Positions 1 to 6,497 of a stretch of DNA of 6,497 nt are shown here, piece after piece (the first letter of the stretch is position 1; each line of letters starts with the position of its first letter). Source of the stretch: Candidatus Babeliales bacterium (GTDB taxonomy: Bacteria > Babelota > Babeliae > Babelales > Vermiphilaceae); contig JAGVMI010000021.1 in assembly GCA_020053845.1 (NCBI GenBank), positions 1 to 6,497 on the forward strand, in the 5' to 3' direction. The notes under the pieces are model-generated. The model ran no database searches and was not told where the DNA came from. It saw only the letters and a list, made by a program, of their open reading frames with translations. A program made the position numbers and the translations under genes.

Positions 1-489
1 ACACACATGGTTGCCATGGATGCAGGTATATCAACAGGTGGCTTTACCGATTGCTTGCTGCAGCGAGGTGTGCAGCGTGTGTATGGCGTTGATGTGGGTT
101 ATGGTCAGCTGCATGAAAAAATACGTAGTGACAATCGCGTAGTGGTGCGTGAGCGTACCAATTTGCGTGAGCTTGAGACGTTAGGCGAACGTGTTGATAT
201 AGTAACGCTCGATCTCTCATTTATATCTGTGCTGAAAGTGATGGATGCTGTAGAGCGTGTGCTCAAGCCTGAGGGAAAACTTATTATTCTCATCAAGCCA
301 CAATTTGAAGCGCAAAAACATGAGGTGGGCAGAGGCGGTATCATTAAAGATCCTGCGGTGCACCATGAAGTAGTTGAGCGTGTTAAAGAAGGCATGCGTG
401 CGCGTGGGTTTGTCTGCCATGGCGTTATCGAATCGCCTATTCTAGGCGGTTCTGGCAATAAAGAATTTCTCGCATATTTTACTCGCTAA
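1..489 (+). CDS. tlyA: TlyA-family rRNA 2'-O-methyltransferase, 3' part
   Basis: Partial gene: the frame is open to the left edge, so the ATG at 7 is probably internal and 162 residues are visible. TlyA proteins are usually about 240-270 residues, so the N-terminal S4 RNA-binding domain and the start of the methyltransferase domain lie outside the window. Visible are the SAM-binding motif I (D-A-G-I-S-T-G-G-F-T-D-C), then V-D-V-G-Y-G-Q and R-S-D near 'ERTN', the L-D-L-S-F-I-S segment with the likely catalytic Asp, the I-K-P-Q-F-E segment with the likely catalytic Lys, and the C-terminal S-P-I-L-G-G-S-G-N-K-E-F-L block with the likely catalytic Glu. This order is characteristic of TlyA. Characterised members methylate the 2'-OH of cytidines in 16S and 23S rRNA; some were first described as haemolysins. 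The enzyme is cytoplasmic. The stop codon overlaps the convergent gene on the other strand by 11 bases. Family assignment is firm; the exact target nucleotide here is inferred. Confidence 0.95.
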   Translation, partial: THMVAMDAGISTGGFTDCLLQRGVQRVYGVDVGYGQLHEKIRSDNRVVVRERTNLRELETLGERVDIVTLDLSFISVLKVMDAVERVLKPEGKLIILIKPQFEAQKHEVGRGGIIKDPAVHHEVVERVKEGMRARGFVCHGVIESPILGGSGNKEFLAYFTR

Positions 490-2557
490 TGGTGTTTGGG
501 AGAGTTTCTTGCCTGTTTTCAGGCATAAGTGTGGCTTCATTTTCAGAGAAGCGAGATGTCTTTTTGCGCGGTGTATAGGGGCCACGGCATTGTGCAATTC
601 GAGTATGGCCTTTGGTTTTTAGAAAACCTTGTGTGTGAAATTTCTTCAGAATTTTTTGTTGTGGCTTTTCTACATCCCCTATGTATATGTATACCTTAGA
701 TCGCTCTTCAGGTGGCTTATCTTTCTGTTCCATACACGCTGTATAATAGCTGCATAGCGTCGTGTATTGCTCCTCACTTATGCGTTGAGAAACTGCAAGA
801 AGAAATCTGTTGAGCATGCTTGCACAGTACCCTTTAGTTGCAAATAAACAGACCATTTTTTCATGAAACATGCCGTGCTTAACGCCCAGAAGAAAAAGCT
901 CGGAAGAGATCGTATCAGAAAAGAATACGTCAACTGCTTTGGCCGAGGTATTCAACGAAATTGTTGAGCGTTGAGAGCTAGACGGATACTGAATGTGAGG
1001 GTTGTGATCAGAGAATGAATGAATTGATAAATCAATACCTTTGTCTAGAGCTATTAGCTTAGCGGTAGTAATGTGCGTTTCGCTTATCAGGGGATCTTGT
1101 TGAAAAGCAGGAATCATAGTGTAAAACACTTGAGGATCACGAGTTGCTTTCAGCCAATCGCGTGCTTGATGGTAACTCATTTTGTACTTATCTGCTATTA
1201 AGGCGACAAATGTAGAACCATAATGTAGGAACGGCTCATTTTTTAGGCTCTCCTCCTTTTCAGGGGGATTAATAACATGTTGTACATATTCCCTGTGTGC
1301 AGCGAATTGCTCGGGCCATGTTGTGATTCTCTGCAGGATGCGCGTACGAAGTTCTTCTGCTGTACAGTACTGAATGCCGCAGGTAATTATCTGATATATG
1401 AGAGAGTCTACGAGAGCATCAGGTATTTGATATGGGCTCTCCATCGGATGTAGTGATTGCACAGCAGGTATTGCATAACACATGTCAACGGAAGTGTACG
1501 GTGCGTAGGATGCAGTAGGTGGTACGTTATAAGGTACAGAAGTAATCTCAGAAAGATAGACGGGTGACGCAAGGTCCGGAGCAGGAATACTGTTTTGCAT
1601 GGGAGTTAGCTCTATTTGGGGTGCCAAAACTCCGAGGCTCGGATCATTTGCCAGCCATGTTTTAAAAAGATTTTCTGTAGCTGTTCGGTTTCGGGTTTTT
1701 TGAGGCATGTTTTGCGCGAGATTACTAATGTTGTCAGGATTGCTGATACCTTCAGGATAGTGATAGCCAACAAGAGCTTTTTGCTTTTCAGGCTGTTTTA
1801 TACACTTTTTCACATCATTGAGGCGCTTTTTAAAATCTGGATATTCAAACTTGTTATCAAGTGCTTGTATCATCTGCGGATGGAACATTCCGTGATGTAT
1901 ACCGCTGCTCAATTCAGCTGAGCTGAAATCTTTGTTGAAAAAAAACGCATGAGATGCTTTTAAAGACGTATTAAGTATTCGGCATATATATTGACTCTGT
2001 TCTTGATCTATATCTGTCTCGAGCTGAGAGCGCTCATTATAGGTGCACATAAGTGGTGTTTTACAATCGAGGGCATTGAGTTTGAGCATGGTCAGAATAG
2101 CTTCATTACGTGTGCTTCTTGGTTTGTGTGCGCGTACTGTGTCGATAGCTGCTACAAGTGCAGTGGGATGCTGTTCTAAATGTAATTCTTGCATCTTTCT
2201 TCGTATATAATCAACGCCATAATCTTTTTTTTTGAGGAGCTTTATAAGTGTATCAATAAGCTGCTCATCGCGTGAGGATTGATTGTGCTGGCGTTGGTCG
2301 GGTGAATTGTGCGGCATAACATACTGCGACAATGGAGGTTGATATGCGTCAGCAGGATGTAATGTATACATTTGGTCACATGTGCTGCCATCTACTTCTT
2401 CATTGAGCAGGCCGAGCTCGAGTAGCGTTCGGGTAGTATCGTATGTGAGAAAGGTGTCTGCAGATTCCAAAGATGGCGATGGTTCAGGATAAGCGTCGAA
2501 AAATGCATGCAAAGGATGTAGCGTACATACGCTTAAAAACACTATGTTACGCAGCAC
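479..2557 (-). CDS. Exported two-unit helical-repeat protein, family not recognised
   Basis: A 692-residue protein of unknown function. The start is GTG: an in-frame TAG lies five codons upstream, and AGGGGG sits 8 bases before the GTG. Residues 1-18 form a hydrophobic signal sequence ending near H-A, so export is likely. The body holds two related units. Unit A (about 100-270) and unit B (about 382-606) each open with L-[IV]-D-[TS]-L-I and pass through an A-L-D segment. Each then has an L-N-T-S box (195-198; 535-538), an F-F pair, and an H-G-M-F-H motif (222-226; 561-565). A Pro-rich linker (about 305-380) separates them. The tail (about 620-692) is different: it contains V-Y-I-Y-I-G and is rich in Lys and Arg (P-R-K-K-T-S-R), with no match I recognise. 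It is the last gene of a five-gene paralogous run, 155 bases after its neighbour. The units are probably all-helical and may bind proteins, but this is inference. No catalytic motif is visible. Confidence 0.88.
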   Translation of the reverse strand: MLRNIVFLSVCTLHPLHAFFDAYPEPSPSLESADTFLTYDTTRTLLELGLLNEEVDGSTCDQMYTLHPADAYQPPLSQYVMPHNSPDQRQHNQSSRDEQLIDTLIKLLKKKDYGVDYIRRKMQELHLEQHPTALVAAIDTVRAHKPRSTRNEAILTMLKLNALDCKTPLMCTYNERSQLETDIDQEQSQYICRILNTSLKASHAFFFNKDFSSAELSSGIHHGMFHPQMIQALDNKFEYPDFKKRLNDVKKCIKQPEKQKALVGYHYPEGISNPDNISNLAQNMPQKTRNRTATENLFKTWLANDPSLGVLAPQIELTPMQNSIPAPDLASPVYLSEITSVPYNVPPTASYAPYTSVDMCYAIPAVQSLHPMESPYQIPDALVDSLIYQIITCGIQYCTAEELRTRILQRITTWPEQFAAHREYVQHVINPPEKEESLKNEPFLHYGSTFVALIADKYKMSYHQARDWLKATRDPQVFYTMIPAFQQDPLISETHITTAKLIALDKGIDLSIHSFSDHNPHIQYPSSSQRSTISLNTSAKAVDVFFSDTISSELFLLGVKHGMFHEKMVCLFATKGYCASMLNRFLLAVSQRISEEQYTTLCSYYTACMEQKDKPPEERSKVYIYIGDVEKPQQKILKKFHTQGFLKTKGHTRIAQCRGPYTPRKKTSRFSENEATLMPENRQETLPNTISE
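743..1414 (-). repeat. Repeat unit B of the 692-residue protein
   Basis: Codes for residues about 382-606. It begins L-V-D-S-L-I-Y-Q-I-I, matching the start of unit A, and carries I-S-L-N-T-S, V-F-F and H-G-M-F-H-E-K-M (HGMFH at 863-877). It is about 50 residues longer than unit A, mainly from an insertion in its first half around a run of Pro and Glu. The boundaries are approximate. Confidence 0.7.
1748..2260 (-). repeat. Repeat unit A of the 692-residue protein
   Basis: Codes for residues about 100-270. It begins L-I-D-T-L-I-K-L-L and carries an L-N-T-S box, an F-F-F run and H-G-M-F-H-P-Q-M (HGMFH at 1880-1894). It aligns by eye to unit B of the same protein and to the core of the 495-residue protein. 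The boundaries are approximate. The copies have diverged at DNA level, so the duplication is not recent. Confidence 0.7.
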
Positions 2558-2565
2558 TGAACTAT

Positions 2566-2571
2566 CCCCCT
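2566..2571 (-). promoter_or_regulatory. Shine-Dalgarno site for the 692-residue gene
   Basis: On the - strand AGGGGG lies 8 bases upstream of the GTG at 2557-2555. It decides the start: the only ATG just upstream in the same frame is followed after three codons by TAG. Confidence 0.6.
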
Positions 2572-2648
2572 ACCCAACATACATGAGCTTATTCAAGCCG
2601 TAAGATGCCCCTCGCTCGCCAAGCTTTTTTACAGAGCAAGCATAGATT

Positions 2649-2678
2649 AGTGTATTATTACGAGGGTTTGCGTTGCAA
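2649..2678 (-). promoter_or_regulatory. Weak candidate promoter before the 692-residue gene
   Basis: In the 155-base gap, the - strand has TTGCAA (2678-2673), an 18-base spacer, and TACACT (2654-2649). Each hexamer matches four of six positions of the sigma-70 consensus. A TAATAAT run sits within the spacer. The length of the gap makes a local promoter plausible, but matches this weak occur by chance. Confidence 0.2.
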
Positions 2679-2712
2679 TCATAAGATAGTTTTTGGGGAT
2701 ACAGTCAACGCG

Positions 2713-3477
2713 TTATCTACGGCTGATGATTTCCCCAAGCGTTTTGGGTCTTTGTCTCTTGCGTCGCTCTTTGAAAGGCCGAGCCACGAGAGAGATCCCG
2801 CTTGCGGAACTGCACAGGGTAAAATGCAAACTGCTCTGATTATGTGTATCGTTAGGTTCTGTGCTTGTGACGTACTTGCATACACCTGTTCGAGGGTTTG
2901 TTCTGCCTGTATGGCGCGCGACAATCTTTTGGATTGTAGCGTGTTCTTTATCACACAAATTCTCAACGTACTTAATAATCTCTTTATCTATTTTATTAGG
3001 GTCGAGAGGATAGTTTGCATGACATGCGACAAGCTTATTGAATTGTTGTTCGTTAATATCATTACTCGCTATTTTTTTTCTGAGGCAAATACATATTTTT
3101 CGTAGTGTTGGCAGGCTATAGCCTTGTGCGATGCTCCATAAAAGTATTGCCTCATGAAATATATTATTGTCTATTGCTCGCATCACATCGCTTGCAGTGC
3201 TCAGTTCATGCTCCACAACAAATTTTGCAATAGTATCCAGAGGGGTTTGCGGAGTCTCGGAAGTGCATTGCTGAGCGCTCGATATGTCATCAGAAGATGA
3301 ATTTTCTTCATTATAACGCGGCACCCAACCAACTAATGATAGGGAGAACGCATTGTTCAAGTCATTATCTGCATTGATCAATTGTGTGATCCAGAAATCG
3401 GGCTCTGTAGGTGAATTTTCCTGAGCATATACGTGTATGGTACATAGTGTTATGATCGCGAAGAAAAAGGTGCGCAT
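2713..3477 (-). CDS. Exported single-module protein with basic tail, family not recognised
   Basis: A 254-residue protein of unknown function. It starts at ATG with AGGAGA 5 bases upstream. Residues 1-18 are a clear signal peptide: one Arg, a hydrophobic core, then V-Y-A before Q-E, a good signal peptidase I site. Residues 60-80 are Ser/Thr-rich and low in complexity. The core (about 88-180) holds N-N-I-F-H-E-A (NNIFH at 104-108), then L-R-K-I and F-N-K-L-V-A-C-H. This core aligns with residues about 62-140 of the 283-residue neighbour, where I-K-K-I, L-R-Q-Q-I, F-N-K-M and C-N-K take corresponding places. The end is strongly basic (K-E-R-R-K-R-Q-R-P-K at 236-245). It lies third from the tlyA junction's far side in the run, 102 bases after the 495-residue gene and 155 before the 692-residue gene. 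The basic tail could bind nucleic acid or act as a nuclear signal in a host; both are speculative. Confidence 0.85.
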   Translation of the reverse strand: MRTFFFAIITLCTIHVYAQENSPTEPDFWITQLINADNDLNNAFSLSLVGWVPRYNEENSSSDDISSAQQCTSETPQTPLDTIAKFVVEHELSTASDVMRAIDNNIFHEAILLWSIAQGYSLPTLRKICICLRKKIASNDINEQQFNKLVACHANYPLDPNKIDKEIIKYVENLCDKEHATIQKIVARHTGRTNPRTGVCKYVTSTEPNDTHNQSSLHFTLCSSASGISLVARPFKERRKRQRPKTLGEIISRR

Positions 3478-3482
3478 ACTAT

Positions 3483-3488
3483 TCTCCT
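3483..3488 (-). promoter_or_regulatory. Shine-Dalgarno site for the 254-residue gene
   Basis: AGGAGA on the - strand, 5 bases before the ATG at 3477. The intervening bases are ATAGT, identical to those before the ATG at 5915. Confidence 0.7.
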
Positions 3489-3507
3489 GAATACAATGCT
3501 ACGAGTG

Positions 3508-3537
3508 ATTATTAGTGCGATAAGATACCACCAGCAA
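3508..3537 (-). promoter_or_regulatory. Weak candidate promoter before the 254-residue gene
   Basis: In the 102-base gap the - strand has TTGCTG (3537-3532), an 18-base spacer, then AATAAT (3513-3508). The second hexamer is one base from TATAAT; the first is poor. The site lies about 30 bases from the start codon, a sensible place, but it is not proven. Confidence 0.25.
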
Positions 3538-3549
3538 ATGCTTTGTACG

Positions 3550-3569
3550 CGTTTTTGTGCGCAAAAATG
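3550..3569 (-). other. Short AT-rich hairpin after the 495-residue gene
   Basis: The sequence can fold as CG-TTTTTG, loop TGCG, CAAAAA-TG: six Watson-Crick pairs, one G-U and one C-G pair. It begins about 10 bases after the stop of the 495-residue gene. It lacks GC-rich arms and a U-tract, so it is not a standard terminator, but it might slow transcription or shape mRNA ends between the two genes. Confidence 0.25.
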
Positions 3570-3579
3570 AGCGGATAGA

Positions 3580-5067
3580 TCATTGTTTGAAGCGTTTTCT
3601 GGGCGGCGTTTCTTCCTCTGAGCATTCTTCTTCGCTCTCTTCATTCTCACTGATGTCGTTGGAGGTGATTTGTTCAGCCGAGGATGTCAGATTGATGTAG
3701 TTGCTTTCAGAGGATACAGCGGATGCTTCCGATTGATTTTGCGCACCCAATAGTGATCGCACGTATGTGTTGAGTGTATCCGGATAAAGTGGACTCTGTT
3801 CGAGATGATTTAACGCCTGTGCGCATAACTGCTCAGGGGAATAAAGAGGTGCAAAAGAAGCAATCGTATTGACAAAGCACTCTATGCAGTTGTTGATTGG
3901 CGCTTGGGTGATTGGCTCAACATTGTTGGTATCACAGAGTGGCGGTGACGTGTATTCCTGGTTTGTTTGCTCAATCAGCTGAGTTGCCGTATTAGTTGCA
4001 AGATCAGGCATTTTTTGTATCCATGCATTGCGCAGGACTTCGAAGATGTTTTCATTAAGAAGATTGTTAGAAATACTTTTTTCTTGCATATAATGATCAA
4101 TAATAGCTTTTCTTTTTTGAAAGTCGATTATGTGGGTTTGGACACTCTTCATACATTGGCGAAATACTGTGCTCTGGTATTTGTTGCCTAGCTGTTGAAT
4201 TATCGTCGCATGAAATATGTTGTGTTTTATGCCCAGGCACATTTCTTCTGCAGTGAAGTCTACGTTCGCAAAGAATACCTGAGAGGCGGATAAAGAAGTG
4301 TTGAGAGTGCGAGTATGCAGTTGGCTTTTGCAAGGCTCCTTTCCTGAGCAGAGATCGCTGCGATCGTTTTTTGACAGGTCTATGCCCTCTTCGAGTGCGT
4401 GTAGTTTAAGTATAGTGGTGAGCACTTCAAAGCGATCGATATCTTTTTGATTTTGCAATGTTTGTGCATGGTCTTGTACTGCATCTATAACCTCCACACA
4501 GATACCAGGATGTTGCGTTTCCTTGAGGTTATATATCACTTTTCTCAGACTCTTTATCTTGTAATTATCTTGTAATGCGGCAACTACATTTATTTTTGTT
4601 TCCTCAAATCCACATGCTCTTGCTACAACTGCTTTTGCAAGTGGAGTAACGGGCACAGAGCGCTGCTGGGCTAATGTTATAGAGGCAAGTAATATGCGCT
4701 GCGCATCTTGTGTGCTGAGAGTAGCGAGTGGAATATGAGGCATGTGCATGTGCTCGGGGTTGTTGCTTTGAGGCTGTGGGCTTGTTGGGCTGGCAGATGC
4801 TGATTGTATCTGCGTGGCATGATCGAGGTTTTCTTCAGGTGTTGCATTCCTGAATAGCTCTTCTAGCGATGATGATTCAAAAAGCTCATGAGTTTGTGAA
4901 GAACCGTTCTGATGTTGCTGCATAGAGGGGCTATAATAGTGCGCTGCAGTTTGTTCATCAGGAATCCACGAAGGTGAGGAAAACTGATTTTCTCCATCAC
5001 ACGCGCATAGTGAAAAGAATGAGCACATGCTTATAAGTGCTATTATCAACATGTTTTTGCAACTCAT
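3580..5067 (-). CDS. Exported helical-repeat protein with acidic-basic tail, family not recognised
   Basis: A 495-residue protein of unknown function. The chosen ATG overlaps the stop of the upstream gene as ATGA and has GAGGT 9 bases before it; a second ATG at codon 6 has no such site. Residues 1-22 are a signal sequence; S-L-C-A-C at 19-23 could be a lipobox with Cys23 lipidated, but Cys at -2 is atypical. Residues about 25-115 are rich in Ser, Gln and Pro and probably disordered. The core (about 120-330) matches unit A of the 692-residue protein: Y-K-I-K-S-L-R-K, A-L-E-E-G-I-D-L, L-N-T-S (255-258), V-F-F and H-N-I-F-H (282-286; DNA 4210-4224). Residues about 395-442 match only the opening of a second unit (Y-S-P-E-Q-L, H-L-E-Q-S-P-L). 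The end is very acidic (about 472-487) followed by P-P-R-K-R-F-K-Q. It is translationally coupled to the 283-residue gene. A host-directed role is possible but unproven. Confidence 0.88.
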   Translation of the reverse strand: MSCKNMLIIALISMCSFFSLCACDGENQFSSPSWIPDEQTAAHYYSPSMQQHQNGSSQTHELFESSSLEELFRNATPEENLDHATQIQSASASPTSPQPQSNNPEHMHMPHIPLATLSTQDAQRILLASITLAQQRSVPVTPLAKAVVARACGFEETKINVVAALQDNYKIKSLRKVIYNLKETQHPGICVEVIDAVQDHAQTLQNQKDIDRFEVLTTILKLHALEEGIDLSKNDRSDLCSGKEPCKSQLHTRTLNTSLSASQVFFANVDFTAEEMCLGIKHNIFHATIIQQLGNKYQSTVFRQCMKSVQTHIIDFQKRKAIIDHYMQEKSISNNLLNENIFEVLRNAWIQKMPDLATNTATQLIEQTNQEYTSPPLCDTNNVEPITQAPINNCIECFVNTIASFAPLYSPEQLCAQALNHLEQSPLYPDTLNTYVRSLLGAQNQSEASAVSSESNYINLTSSAEQITSNDISENEESEEECSEEETPPRKRFKQ

Positions 5068-5915
5068 TGCTTGGTTACCTCGAGAGCAGCTTTGGCTCGT
5101 TGAGCTAAAATGGGAGATTCTAATCTCTGTACTATTTGTTTTTGCGGGTCATCGCACAGAGGATAGTTTTTTAGATGATTAGCCATGGCCTGCAAAGCAT
5201 CTATAGGCAAATATTTTTGAGCTATCTTAGCAAGTTCTATTAGAGTTCCAAGCTGTACAGGCTTGTTATAACGGCGATCTTTTTTTCCTTCAATAATCTT
5301 GAAGAGTGCTGGGCACCACTTTCCTTGCTTAATATTTTCCCTGCATGTGGGAAGGCCTGCTTTTCTAAAGACTTGCTCGTCAATGATGGTAGATAGAGAG
5401 AGCCGGGTTATTTTTTTGGTATAAGTAGATTTTTTCCTAATGGTTATGTCGGGTCTCAATAAAGTATCCGTAGATCTTGGCGTAATCTGATTGTACGGTT
5501 TATTACACCAACGATTGACGAATTTTTTAATGTGAGGATCCATGTTAAGCCCATACCAAGCATTAGATCTATGGTATGCGGTCATCTTATTAAATGCAGA
5601 TGCTGATATGTTACCGGCGACTATTTGTTGCCTAAGAACACTAGCTATTTTTTTTATAACCTCGATCTTGTAAGACTGCCTTGCGAGCTGTAGGAACAAA
5701 TTTTCTGGCAGTATGCCTTTGCGCAGTTCATCTTTCAACTGTGGAGCTGGCTTATAATCATTTGCTGAGTCTTTAAGAGGAAGGCAATGAGCACATGACG
5801 TTTCGCTAATAATAGGAAGAGCTTCAAGGGGAAAGGGAGTGTAGTCATTATCTGTGTTCATAGCGAGCATTTGTGCGCATGAAATTACAGCAAATGCGAG
5901 TGCAAAGATAAGCAT
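5064..5915 (-). CDS. Exported two-module protein with W-C-P-A-L-F motif, family not recognised
   Basis: A 283-residue protein of unknown function. It starts at ATG with AAGGA 4 bases upstream. Residues 1-18 are a signal sequence without early positive charges (M-L-I-F-A-L-A-F then S-C-A-Q-M-L-A); its opening resembles the 495-residue protein from its second Met. A C-A-H-C pair sits at 41-44 of the preprotein. Two modules follow. The first (about 62-140) resembles the core of the 254-residue protein, including F-N-K-M, and has G-I-L-P-E in place of the F-H motif. The second (about 180-268) contains Q-V-F, W-C-P-A-L-F (200-205; DNA 5301-5318), G-T-L-I-E-L-A and H-L-K-N-Y-P-L. It matches the C-terminal half of the adjacent partial gene closely. 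A basic stretch (R-K-K-S-T-Y-T-K-K) lies between the modules. It follows that gene by 31 bases and overlaps the next by 4, so these three are probably one transcript. No catalytic motif is evident. Confidence 0.88.
   Translation of the reverse strand: MLIFALAFAVISCAQMLAMNTDNDYTPFPLEALPIISETSCAHCLPLKDSANDYKPAPQLKDELRKGILPENLFLQLARQSYKIEVIKKIASVLRQQIVAGNISASAFNKMTAYHRSNAWYGLNMDPHIKKFVNRWCNKPYNQITPRSTDTLLRPDITIRKKSTYTKKITRLSLSTIIDEQVFRKAGLPTCRENIKQGKWCPALFKIIEGKKDRRYNKPVQLGTLIELAKIAQKYLPIDALQAMANHLKNYPLCDDPQKQIVQRLESPILAQRAKAALEVTKQ
5077..5081 (-). promoter_or_regulatory. Shine-Dalgarno site for the 495-residue gene
   Basis: GAGGT on the - strand, 9 bases before the ATG at 5067, inside the last codons of the upstream gene. 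With the ATGA stop-start overlap it points to coupled translation. Confidence 0.55.
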
Positions 5916-5919
5916 ACTA

Positions 5920-5924
5920 TCCTT
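5920..5924 (-). promoter_or_regulatory. Shine-Dalgarno site for the 283-residue gene
   Basis: AAGGA on the - strand, 4 bases before the ATG at 5915, in the 31-base gap after the partial gene. The bases GGATAGT recur before the start of the 692-residue gene. Confidence 0.6.
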
Positions 5925-5946
5925 TTTGATACCCTACTAAATAAGT

Positions 5947-6497
5947 TTATTTTTCTTGATCGTGACTGTGTGGCTTTGTATCAGTGATCTCATGGTGGCT
6001 CACTGCACGTTGGCGTAAAATATCGATTATTTTTGTGTTCATATCATTATCAAGCAGAGGATTTTTTTCTAGGTGTTTGACGATAGAATGCAAATTGAAT
6101 GCATGGAGATGGCGCTTTGCCAAATGAGCAAGAGAGATCATAGTTCCAGGCGAAAGCGGCACAGTATCGCGATTTATGTTCTTTCTTTCAAGAATATTAA
6201 ACAAGCCTGGGCACCATTGACTTTTGCCAACAGCTTTTTTGCATTCAAGAATATTTGCACTCTCAAAGAAATTCGCATCTGTTGGGGTGTGAGCATACGC
6301 GCATTTCTTTTTTTGCTGTATGTTGCTTTTTTGCTGACTCAGCTCAGACACATCGATTTTTCTTTTACCTGTTCTTTTTGGCATGTCAGTGAAGGGTGTT
6401 TCATATAAAGACTGCACGTATTTTAATACAGCCTCATCTTTAGCAATTTGATCCCATTGTTTGTAATTTTTGTGATATGTGGAGAATGCATTGAATG
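5947..6497 (-). CDS. W-C-P-G-L-F protein, N-terminus beyond window, family not recognised
   Basis: Partial gene of unknown function. A GTG at 6417 could be taken as the start, but the frame stays open for 26 more codons to the right edge (for example T-Y-H-K-N-Y-K-Q-W-D), with no stop and no good ribosome site at the GTG. The true start is therefore probably outside, and any signal peptide cannot be seen. Of 182 visible residues, about 39-48 form a basic cluster (P-K-R-T-G-K-R-K-I-D), followed by a Gln/Lys-rich stretch. The C-terminal module (about 75-160) holds N-F-F-E, W-C-P-G-L-F (94-99; DNA 6199-6216), P-G-T-M-I-S-L-A and H-L-E-K-N-P-L. It aligns along its length with the C-terminal half of the 283-residue neighbour, so the two are clear paralogues. 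The end is His-rich (S-H-H, P-H-S-H-D). It is the first visible gene of the - strand run, 31 bases before the next. Confidence 0.8.
   Translation of the reverse strand, partial: FNAFSTYHKNYKQWDQIAKDEAVLKYVQSLYETPFTDMPKRTGKRKIDVSELSQQKSNIQQKKKCAYAHTPTDANFFESANILECKKAVGKSQWCPGLFNILERKNINRDTVPLSPGTMISLAHLAKRHLHAFNLHSIVKHLEKNPLLDNDMNTKIIDILRQRAVSHHEITDTKPHSHDQEK

What the first reader, a model, noticed from the sequence alone, without database searches (positions are those of the whole stretch)
479..6497. Tandem family of five probably exported paralogues built from one degenerate helical module
Seen: all five - strand products share a pattern of G-[IV]-x-x-[GN]-[MI]-F-H or G-x-x-W-C-P, followed by hydrophobic positions spaced as in helices, then an L-R-K or L-N-R type helix and an aromatic-H/Y end. 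The hits are at 863-877, 1880-1894, 3154-3168, 4210-4224, 5301-5318 and 6199-6216, with a weaker copy near residue 68 of the 283-residue protein. Several pairs align without gaps for about 18 positions. I recognise no TPR, Sel1, ankyrin or HEAT signature. Inference: a lineage-specific repeat family, expanded locally, probably acting outside the cytoplasm.
Basis: partly seen in the sequence, partly recalled or inferred. Interest (0 to 1): 0.75.

Follow-up and report, generated by a model that had tools for sequence, protein, structure and literature searches.

The report
Private exported protein family, Dependentiae bacterium
An uncultured Dependentiae bacterium, of a phylum whose described isolates live inside protists, carries a row of five related genes with no clear relative in any other genome searched; four share a 62-66-residue module predicted to be helical, and the proteins are likely exported and would bind host proteins.

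Summary
The tandem paralogues are real; the module's boundaries needed correcting. The window is one whole contig of an uncultured Candidatus Dependentiae genome. Four of the five minus-strand proteins share one 62-66-residue module in five copies: two in the 692-residue protein, one each in the 254-, 495- and 283-residue proteins. Held-out profiles recover each of these four above 400 shuffles and 179 neighbour proteins of relatives. The two W-C-P segments (5301-5318, 6199-6216) are not supported as copies; they match each other. The fifth protein is a clear paralogue of the 283-residue one, cut by the contig end inside the module region. The four visible N-termini look like signal peptides. 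No Pfam or NCBIfam family reaches its cut-off, and no clear relative was found among about 5.8 billion proteins (limited sensitivity; near-identical copies apart) or 100 other genomes of the phylum. AlphaFold2 predicts all-helical modules at low confidence; no fold is assignable. Best reading: a genus-private, locally expanded set of Sec-exported host-interaction proteins, alongside the ankyrin arrays typical of the phylum. A weak resemblance to the ubiquitin-associated domain of XIAP is a lead, not a result.

The parts
1..489 (+). C-terminal part of a TlyA-type rRNA methyltransferase gene (conserved neighbour; converges on the array and overlaps it by 11 bases)
   Evidence: TIGR00478 E 1.4e-45, below its cut-off, with only part of the protein present; FtsJ E 5.9e-34; match at E <= 1e-10 in 45 of 51 genomes
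479..2557 (-). A692: exported-type protein with two copies of a roughly 200-residue domain, each holding one module copy; GTG start behind a GGGGG stretch
716..913 (-). module copy A2 (residues 549-614)
1745..1930 (-). module copy A1 (residues 210-271)
638..1240 (-). about 200-residue domain, second copy in A692 (contains module A2)
   Evidence: blastp to C495 E 4e-12; alignment A2
1628..2260 (-). about 200-residue domain, first copy in A692 (contains module A1)
   Evidence: blastp to C495 E 1e-25; alignment A2
2713..3477 (-). B254: exported-type protein, one module copy, basic C-terminal tail
3007..3204 (-). module copy B1 (residues 92-157)
3580..5067 (-). C495: exported-type protein, one module copy in a 200-residue domain, acidic stretch then PPRKRFKQ tail
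4033..4629 (-). about 200-residue domain of C495, modelled as all helices (mean pLDDT 55.7)
4075..4260 (-). module copy C1 (residues 270-331)
5064..5915 (-). D283: exported-type protein with one module copy and a C-terminal region shared with E182; its stop overlaps the C495 start by 4 bases (ATGA)
5067..5438 (-). C-terminal region of D283 with the W-C-P segment, homologous to E182; not supported as a module copy
5947..6495 (-). E182: 5'-truncated paralogue of D283; its first dozen residues align with the end of D's module
   Evidence: blastp E 2e-20 to D283 108-281; alignment A1

Best explanation
The five genes form a tandem set of diverged paralogues in a Candidatus Dependentiae bacterium, four of them sharing a 62-66-residue module, and the proteins are likely exported through Sec and would act as host-interaction (effector-like) binding proteins. 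Shown: paralogy, five module copies, no clear relative in the other genomes searched, signal-like N-termini on the four visible starts, one 4-base gene overlap (D-C). Predicted: the module is a small helical bundle. Inferred from the phylum's biology: after Sec export the proteins would pass the outer membrane by a secretin-dependent (type II-like) route, and the helical modules would dock onto protist proteins, a role proposed for the ankyrin proteins of this phylum. Untested: secretion, any binding partner, any effect on a host.
For: Paralogy and held-out module recovery. Placement from TlyA: 15 of 37 loci are titled Dependentiae, Babeliales or TM6, at 61-73% identity; 10 are titled only 'bacterium' (52-70%); no other group name exceeds 51%. 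Signal-like N-termini without a later membrane segment in A, B, C and D. Two secretin matches in the same genome. The same genome has 29 Ank_2 matches, 22 over the cut-off, 5 and 6 of the 29 on single contigs (C70, C131), and on contig C39 another run of signal-like ORFs with three GNAT paralogues. Published precedent: 44% of C. destructans proteins carry signal sequences, enriched in ORFans (PMC6561590, passages); Babela has lineage-specific expanded secreted families, and type II is its only detected secretion system (PMC4378268, passages).
Against: No direct evidence of secretion, expression or host binding. The signal score is simple, D283 has no positive charge before its hydrophobic core, and 91 of 179 neighbour proteins of relatives pass the same hydrophobicity cut, so export is not distinctive in this phylum. 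Models are low confidence (mean pLDDT 55.7 and 51.5). The link of A/C to D runs through B: the A/C-only profile does not find D (48 of 400 shuffles reach it). Periplasmic or surface roles are not excluded. The start of E182 is not seen. The secretins could serve type IV pili (not tested).
Confidence: 0.6

Rival explanations
1. The proteins are periplasmic or surface structural components (for example envelope scaffolds or adhesins) of this genus, not proteins delivered to a host.
For: Signal-like N-termini would bring them only to the periplasm; D283 has V-I-S-C at residues 10-13, a lipobox-like match (recalled motif), so it might be a lipoprotein.
Against: Strong divergence between neighbours (28-35% identity) and no clear match in 100 other phylum genomes are unlike a conserved envelope part.
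Confidence: 0.25
2. The module is a diverged ubiquitin-associated (UBA) three-helix domain like that of inhibitor-of-apoptosis proteins, so the proteins are ubiquitin-binding adaptors.
For: The best PDB sequence match of the five-copy profile is the XIAP UBA chain 2kna, E 0.0056, next 0.36, with the GF/GY turn and the following helix in register. hhalign against a two-row IAP UBA alignment scores 20.8 (maximum 13.2 in 200 column shuffles), and without the B copy still P 0.0032. Babela exploits the ubiquitin system (PMC4378268, passages).
Against: A reversed-profile control already reaches E 0.034 on an unrelated protein. Without the B copy XIAP is not among the 16 PDB hits; the A/C-only profile has no PDB hit and P 0.22 in hhalign; the B/D profile gives E 0.3. 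The cIAP1 UBA appears in none. Column shuffling breaks helical periodicity, so that control is lenient. No UBA family among the Pfam matches.
Confidence: 0.1
3. The module is a degenerate ankyrin or another known alpha-solenoid repeat whose signature has eroded.
For: Helix-turn-helix pattern; ankyrin proteins are abundant in the same genome; insignificant structural matches include helical-repeat proteins.
Against: No ankyrin, TPR or HEAT profile at E <= 1 in any of five whole proteins; for single modules only TPR_ANAPC2, E 0.015, in one of five copies; the unit length (62-66) differs from ankyrin's 33 (recalled).
Confidence: 0.12

Closest known systems
Ankyrin-repeat secretomes of Dependentiae (Babela massiliensis, Chromulinavorax destructans)
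   Same: Signal-bearing, many paralogues, presumed protein-binding helical modules, same phylum and predicted route
   Different: No ankyrin profile match; the module is longer, occurs once or twice per protein, and was found in this genome only
Lineage-specific expanded secreted families of Babela massiliensis (for example seven proteins with a cysteine-rich and a beta-barrel domain, and the Ulp1-like family; PMC4378268, passages)
   Same: Expanded, predicted secreted, specific to one lineage
   Different: Different domains; here no enzyme, Cys-rich or beta domain is recognised
UBA domain of inhibitor-of-apoptosis proteins (XIAP, 2kna)
   Same: Weak in-register profile similarity over about 49 positions
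   Different: The PDB match is lost without one copy; no BIR domain found in this genome and no BIR, RING or UBA family matched in these proteins

Membership tests
Ankyrin repeat proteins | Match to ankyrin profiles | tested here: not met
   None at E <= 1 for five whole proteins nor listed at E <= 10 for five single modules (HMMER's filters drop most matches above 0.1), while the same genome yields 29 Ank_2 matches, 22 over cut-off
Ankyrin repeat proteins | 33-residue helix-turn-helix units stacked in an L shape (recalled) | tested here: inconclusive
   Low-confidence models; structural searches without significant match
TPR / Sel1 / HEAT repeats | Match to the family profiles above cut-off | tested here: not met
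   None at E <= 1 in five whole proteins; one of five modules touches TPR_ANAPC2 at E 0.015
IAP-type UBA domain | Sequence-profile homology to UBA domains | tested here: inconclusive
   XIAP UBA E 0.0056 but lost without the B copy; reversed control best 0.034; hhalign without B P 0.0032, A/C only P 0.22
IAP-type UBA domain | Ubiquitin binding | not testable with these tools
   Needs a bench assay
Inhibitor-of-apoptosis proteins | BIR zinc-binding domain | tested here: not met
   No BIR match in these proteins at E <= 1 or in this 66.9%-complete genome at E <= 0.001; 1 of 101 phylum genomes has one
Sec-exported Dependentiae secretome | N-terminal signal sequence, no later membrane helix | tested here: met
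   A, B, C, D: hydrophobic core 2.7-3.1, later 19-residue maximum 0.94-1.3 (simple hydrophobicity score); E182 has no visible start; a prediction only
Sec-exported Dependentiae secretome | Outer-membrane secretin present in the genome | tested here: met
   Two secretin matches, E 8.8e-36 and 1.2e-27; whether type II or type IV pilus not tested
Sec-exported Dependentiae secretome | Proteins found outside the cell or in the host | not testable with these tools
   Needs protein detection in infected host cells

The most novel reading that the evidence does not exclude
A genus-private set of secreted ubiquitin-binding adaptors: the module is an independently diverged UBA-like three-helix domain, and the basic tails of B254 and C495 (and the basic stretch of E182) send some members to the nucleus of the protist host.
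Probability: 0.06. Interest if true: 0.75.

Novelty: new variant of a known kind. Interest (0 to 1): 0.4.

Why it matters
Dependentiae are widespread and mostly uncultured; the few described isolates live inside protists, and many of their presumed host-interaction proteins resemble nothing known. A five-copy alignment turns a set of orphan proteins into a testable domain family, and shows that a member of this phylum expands a private non-ankyrin module in a local array. If the module proves to bind ubiquitin or another host hub, it would give a direct handle on how these bacteria manage a eukaryotic cell.

Tried and rejected
W-C-P segments as module copies: not supported. 'Half-modules' at A692 103-125 and C495 162-182, which look similar by eye (KxYxxxxLRK): only 0.1 and 0.6 bits, not claimed. 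A second element shared by the C-termini of C495 and D/E (HLxxxPL): the D/E profile finds C495 at 2.3 bits, reached by 2 of 400 shuffles and 1 of 179 decoys, and does not find A692; suggestive only.

Other family members elsewhere: G026 (E 0.0013) lies in a 654-residue ORF that reads as a PpiD/SurA-type folding protein (my reading, no family search). G019 hits (E 0.004, 0.009) contain stops. G084 (E 0.006) lies in an open, signal-like ORF but is one hit in 101 genomes; not claimed. The module profile gives 44 places at E <= 0.1: the five window copies (E 2e-25 or better) and 39 others in 34 genomes, E 0.002-0.1, of which 15 contain stops and 24 do not. That is more than the roughly 10 that nominal E-values predict, so I looked at ten loci, nine of the 24 open ones and the G084 hit: eight held a protein of 8 bits or more, best 12.6, all partial matches; four read as Lon, a phosphomannomutase-type protein and two aminoacyl-tRNA synthetases (my reading, no family search), and one, from G075, is a signal-like 375-residue ORF matching only positions 21-48. 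I take these as chance, but a few remote relatives are not excluded. Own contig C39:13-204 (E 9.8e-4 with the A/C domain profile) is a 72-residue fragment that the module profile does not list; unresolved. Nothing confirmed in viral contigs or in GTDB r220 contigs (D/E/B alignment only); records very near this genome may be left out there.
Full report
WHAT THE WINDOW IS. The 6497 bases are one complete contig (C107) of an 822,586-base, 148-contig genome estimated 66.9% complete. Bases 1-489 of the plus strand are the 3' part of a TlyA-type rRNA methyltransferase gene. With that fragment as query, 37 loci of GTDB r220 contigs came back: 15 titled Candidatus Dependentiae, Babeliales or TM6 at 61-73% identity, 10 titled only 'bacterium', and 12 of other groups at 51% or less. 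The organism is therefore a Dependentiae bacterium. None of the 50 relatives is listed under its genus.

THE FIVE GENES. All lie on the minus strand: A692 (479-2557), B254 (2713-3477), C495 (3580-5067), D283 (5064-5915) and E182 (5947-6495, open at its 5' end). D283 and C495 overlap by four bases (ATGA), and purine-rich ribosome-binding-like stretches stand before the starts of A, B and D. Gaps are 155 bases (A-B), 102 (B-C) and 31 (D-E), from the coordinates. In the shared A/C domain, of 62 residues identical between C495 and the first copy in A692, 35 use a different codon: identity is kept at protein level after long divergence.

PARALOGY. blastp within the set gives A-C 30% (E 1e-25), a second A region against C (E 4e-12), D-E 28% (E 2e-20) and B-D 28% (E 7e-8); B against A and C is only 0.02 or weaker. 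hhalign of the A/C domain against the B/D alignment gives P 0.0022, probability 12.8%. Ungapped profile scans from A and C have their best place in B and D at the motif. In the 48-residue scan B is reached by 2 of 2000 shuffles and D by 34, and D by 0 of 2000 when B is added to the profile; in the two shorter scans B is reached by 18 and 7 and D by 332 and 224. Held-out HMMs: without D, D scores 10.9 bits; without B, B 24.1; without C, C 31.3; without A, A 13.4; in each case 0 of 400 shuffles and 0 of 179 neighbour proteins of relatives score as high. Against this, the A/C-only profile finds B (7.4 bits, 0 of 400) but not D (-1.0 bits, 48 of 400), and the B/D pair finds A only at 2.2 bits (2 of 400 shuffles, 1 of 179 decoys) and C at 1.7 (8 of 400, 1 of 179). 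The link therefore runs through B. The 179 proteins are the ORFs of at least 80 residues, after removing overlaps, around tlyA in 20 relatives.

CORRECTION OF THE FINDING. The module is 62-66 residues long and has five copies (alignment A4): 716-913, 1745-1930, 3007-3204, 4075-4260 and 5559-5756. The two W-C-P sites are not supported as copies: ungapped scores lie within or below the shuffle range, and hhalign of the A/C domain against the D/E region gives P 0.59. The D/E profile does place best at the A1 motif in A692, but 200 to 927 of 2000 shuffles do as well. E182 matches D283 from D residue 108 onward, so its first dozen residues align with the end of D's module (residues 54-119) and the rest of any module lies beyond the contig end. 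Its membership rests on D283.

HOW FAR IT SPREADS. C495, and the A/C alignment, find only C495's own cluster among about 5.8 billion proteins (candidates must share short words, and only the best 7994 and 7995 were scored). The B/D/E alignment finds only B254 and a near-identical twin of D283 (one substitution at residue 43, last residue missing) on a different, 22,016-base contig. In 101 genomes of the phylum (own included), searched with three profiles, only the window's copies stand out. The module profile also gives 39 weak places in 34 other genomes (E 0.002-0.1; 15 with stops, 24 open), more than nominal E-values predict; in the ten loci that I looked at (nine of those 24, and the G084 hit) the matches are partial (best 12.6 bits), several in what read as housekeeping proteins, so I take them as chance without excluding a few remote relatives. 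Two viral scans and one GTDB scan (B/D/E alignment) confirmed none. Pfam and NCBIfam give nothing above cut-off, PADLOC nothing at E <= 0.1, PHROGs only E 0.016 or weaker. As far as these collections reach, the family is private to a narrow lineage.

THE UBA LEAD. The five-copy profile's best PDB sequence hit is the UBA domain of XIAP (2kna), E 0.0056, next 0.36. Controls are mixed. hhalign against a two-row IAP UBA alignment scores 20.8, above 200 column shuffles (maximum 13.2), and without the B copy still gives P 0.0032, but with A/C alone 0.22. In the PDB search the reversed profile reaches E 0.034 on an unrelated protein, dropping the B copy removes XIAP from the list, the A/C profile hits nothing and the B/D profile gives E 0.3. 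I keep it as a lead.

CONTEXT AND MECHANISM. All four visible N-termini look like Sec signals with no later membrane helix. The hydrophobicity cut also passes 91 of 179 neighbour proteins of relatives, in keeping with a phylum in which 44% of one species' proteins carry signal sequences, enriched in ORFans and ankyrin proteins (PMC6561590, passages read). In Babela massiliensis, expanded lineage-specific secreted families, a type II system as the only detected secretion system, and many ubiquitin-system proteins are described (PMC4378268, passages read). This genome has two secretins, 29 ankyrin matches (22 over cut-off) and another run of signal-like ORFs on C39 with three GNAT acetyltransferases. 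In 20 relatives the gene next to tlyA is signal-like in 12 and convergent in 11, and none of the 179 ORFs there matches the module (best 3.8 bits): the slot is variable. The most economical mechanism is export through Sec, passage by a secretin, and protein binding by helical modules in or on the host. Export is predicted; passage and binding are inferred.

VERDICT. A real, lineage-private, effector-like paralogue array with an unassigned module predicted to be helical. It is interesting as a new building block in a poorly understood phylum, but of a kind (private exported families) already described there. Five literature searches (Dependentiae, effector, signal peptide; two of Dependentiae, paralog, tandem, 12 of 18,445 listed; TM6, parasitism, comparative genomics, ankyrin; Babeliales, secreted; Dependentiae, nuclear localization) listed no paper whose title or abstract start describes such a module. 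I read passages of two papers and did not search for the module itself in print.

Noticed in passing
L068:1330-3774 (own genome, contig C39): Three GNAT acetyltransferase paralogues in a row with signal-like N-termini (my reading), amid other signal-like ORFs without Pfam match: another array of apparently exported paralogues.
   Followed up: partly
L068:4822-5211: A LigD-type 3'-phosphoesterase domain (PF13298, E 1.4e-35) behind a hydrophobic, signal-like N-terminus; cut by the contig end.
   Followed up: partly
L138 (G065:C31:13072-13197): A BIR (inhibitor-of-apoptosis) domain just over cut-off in an 847-residue open frame of another Dependentiae genome, the only one in 101 genomes.
   Followed up: no
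L071:69-1106: An ORF of relative G084 with a signal-like N-terminus and a C-terminal RING-like Cys/His pattern (CPIC...CGHSLC...CPTC; my reading, no family search).
   Followed up: no
5064-5067: Stop of D283 and start of C495 overlap as ATGA; the near-identical twin P0002 lacks the last residue of D283, so the junction may differ there.
   Followed up: partly
3580-3650: C495 ends in an acidic stretch followed by PPRKRFKQ, like a eukaryotic nuclear-localisation tail; not significant against shuffles.
   Followed up: partly
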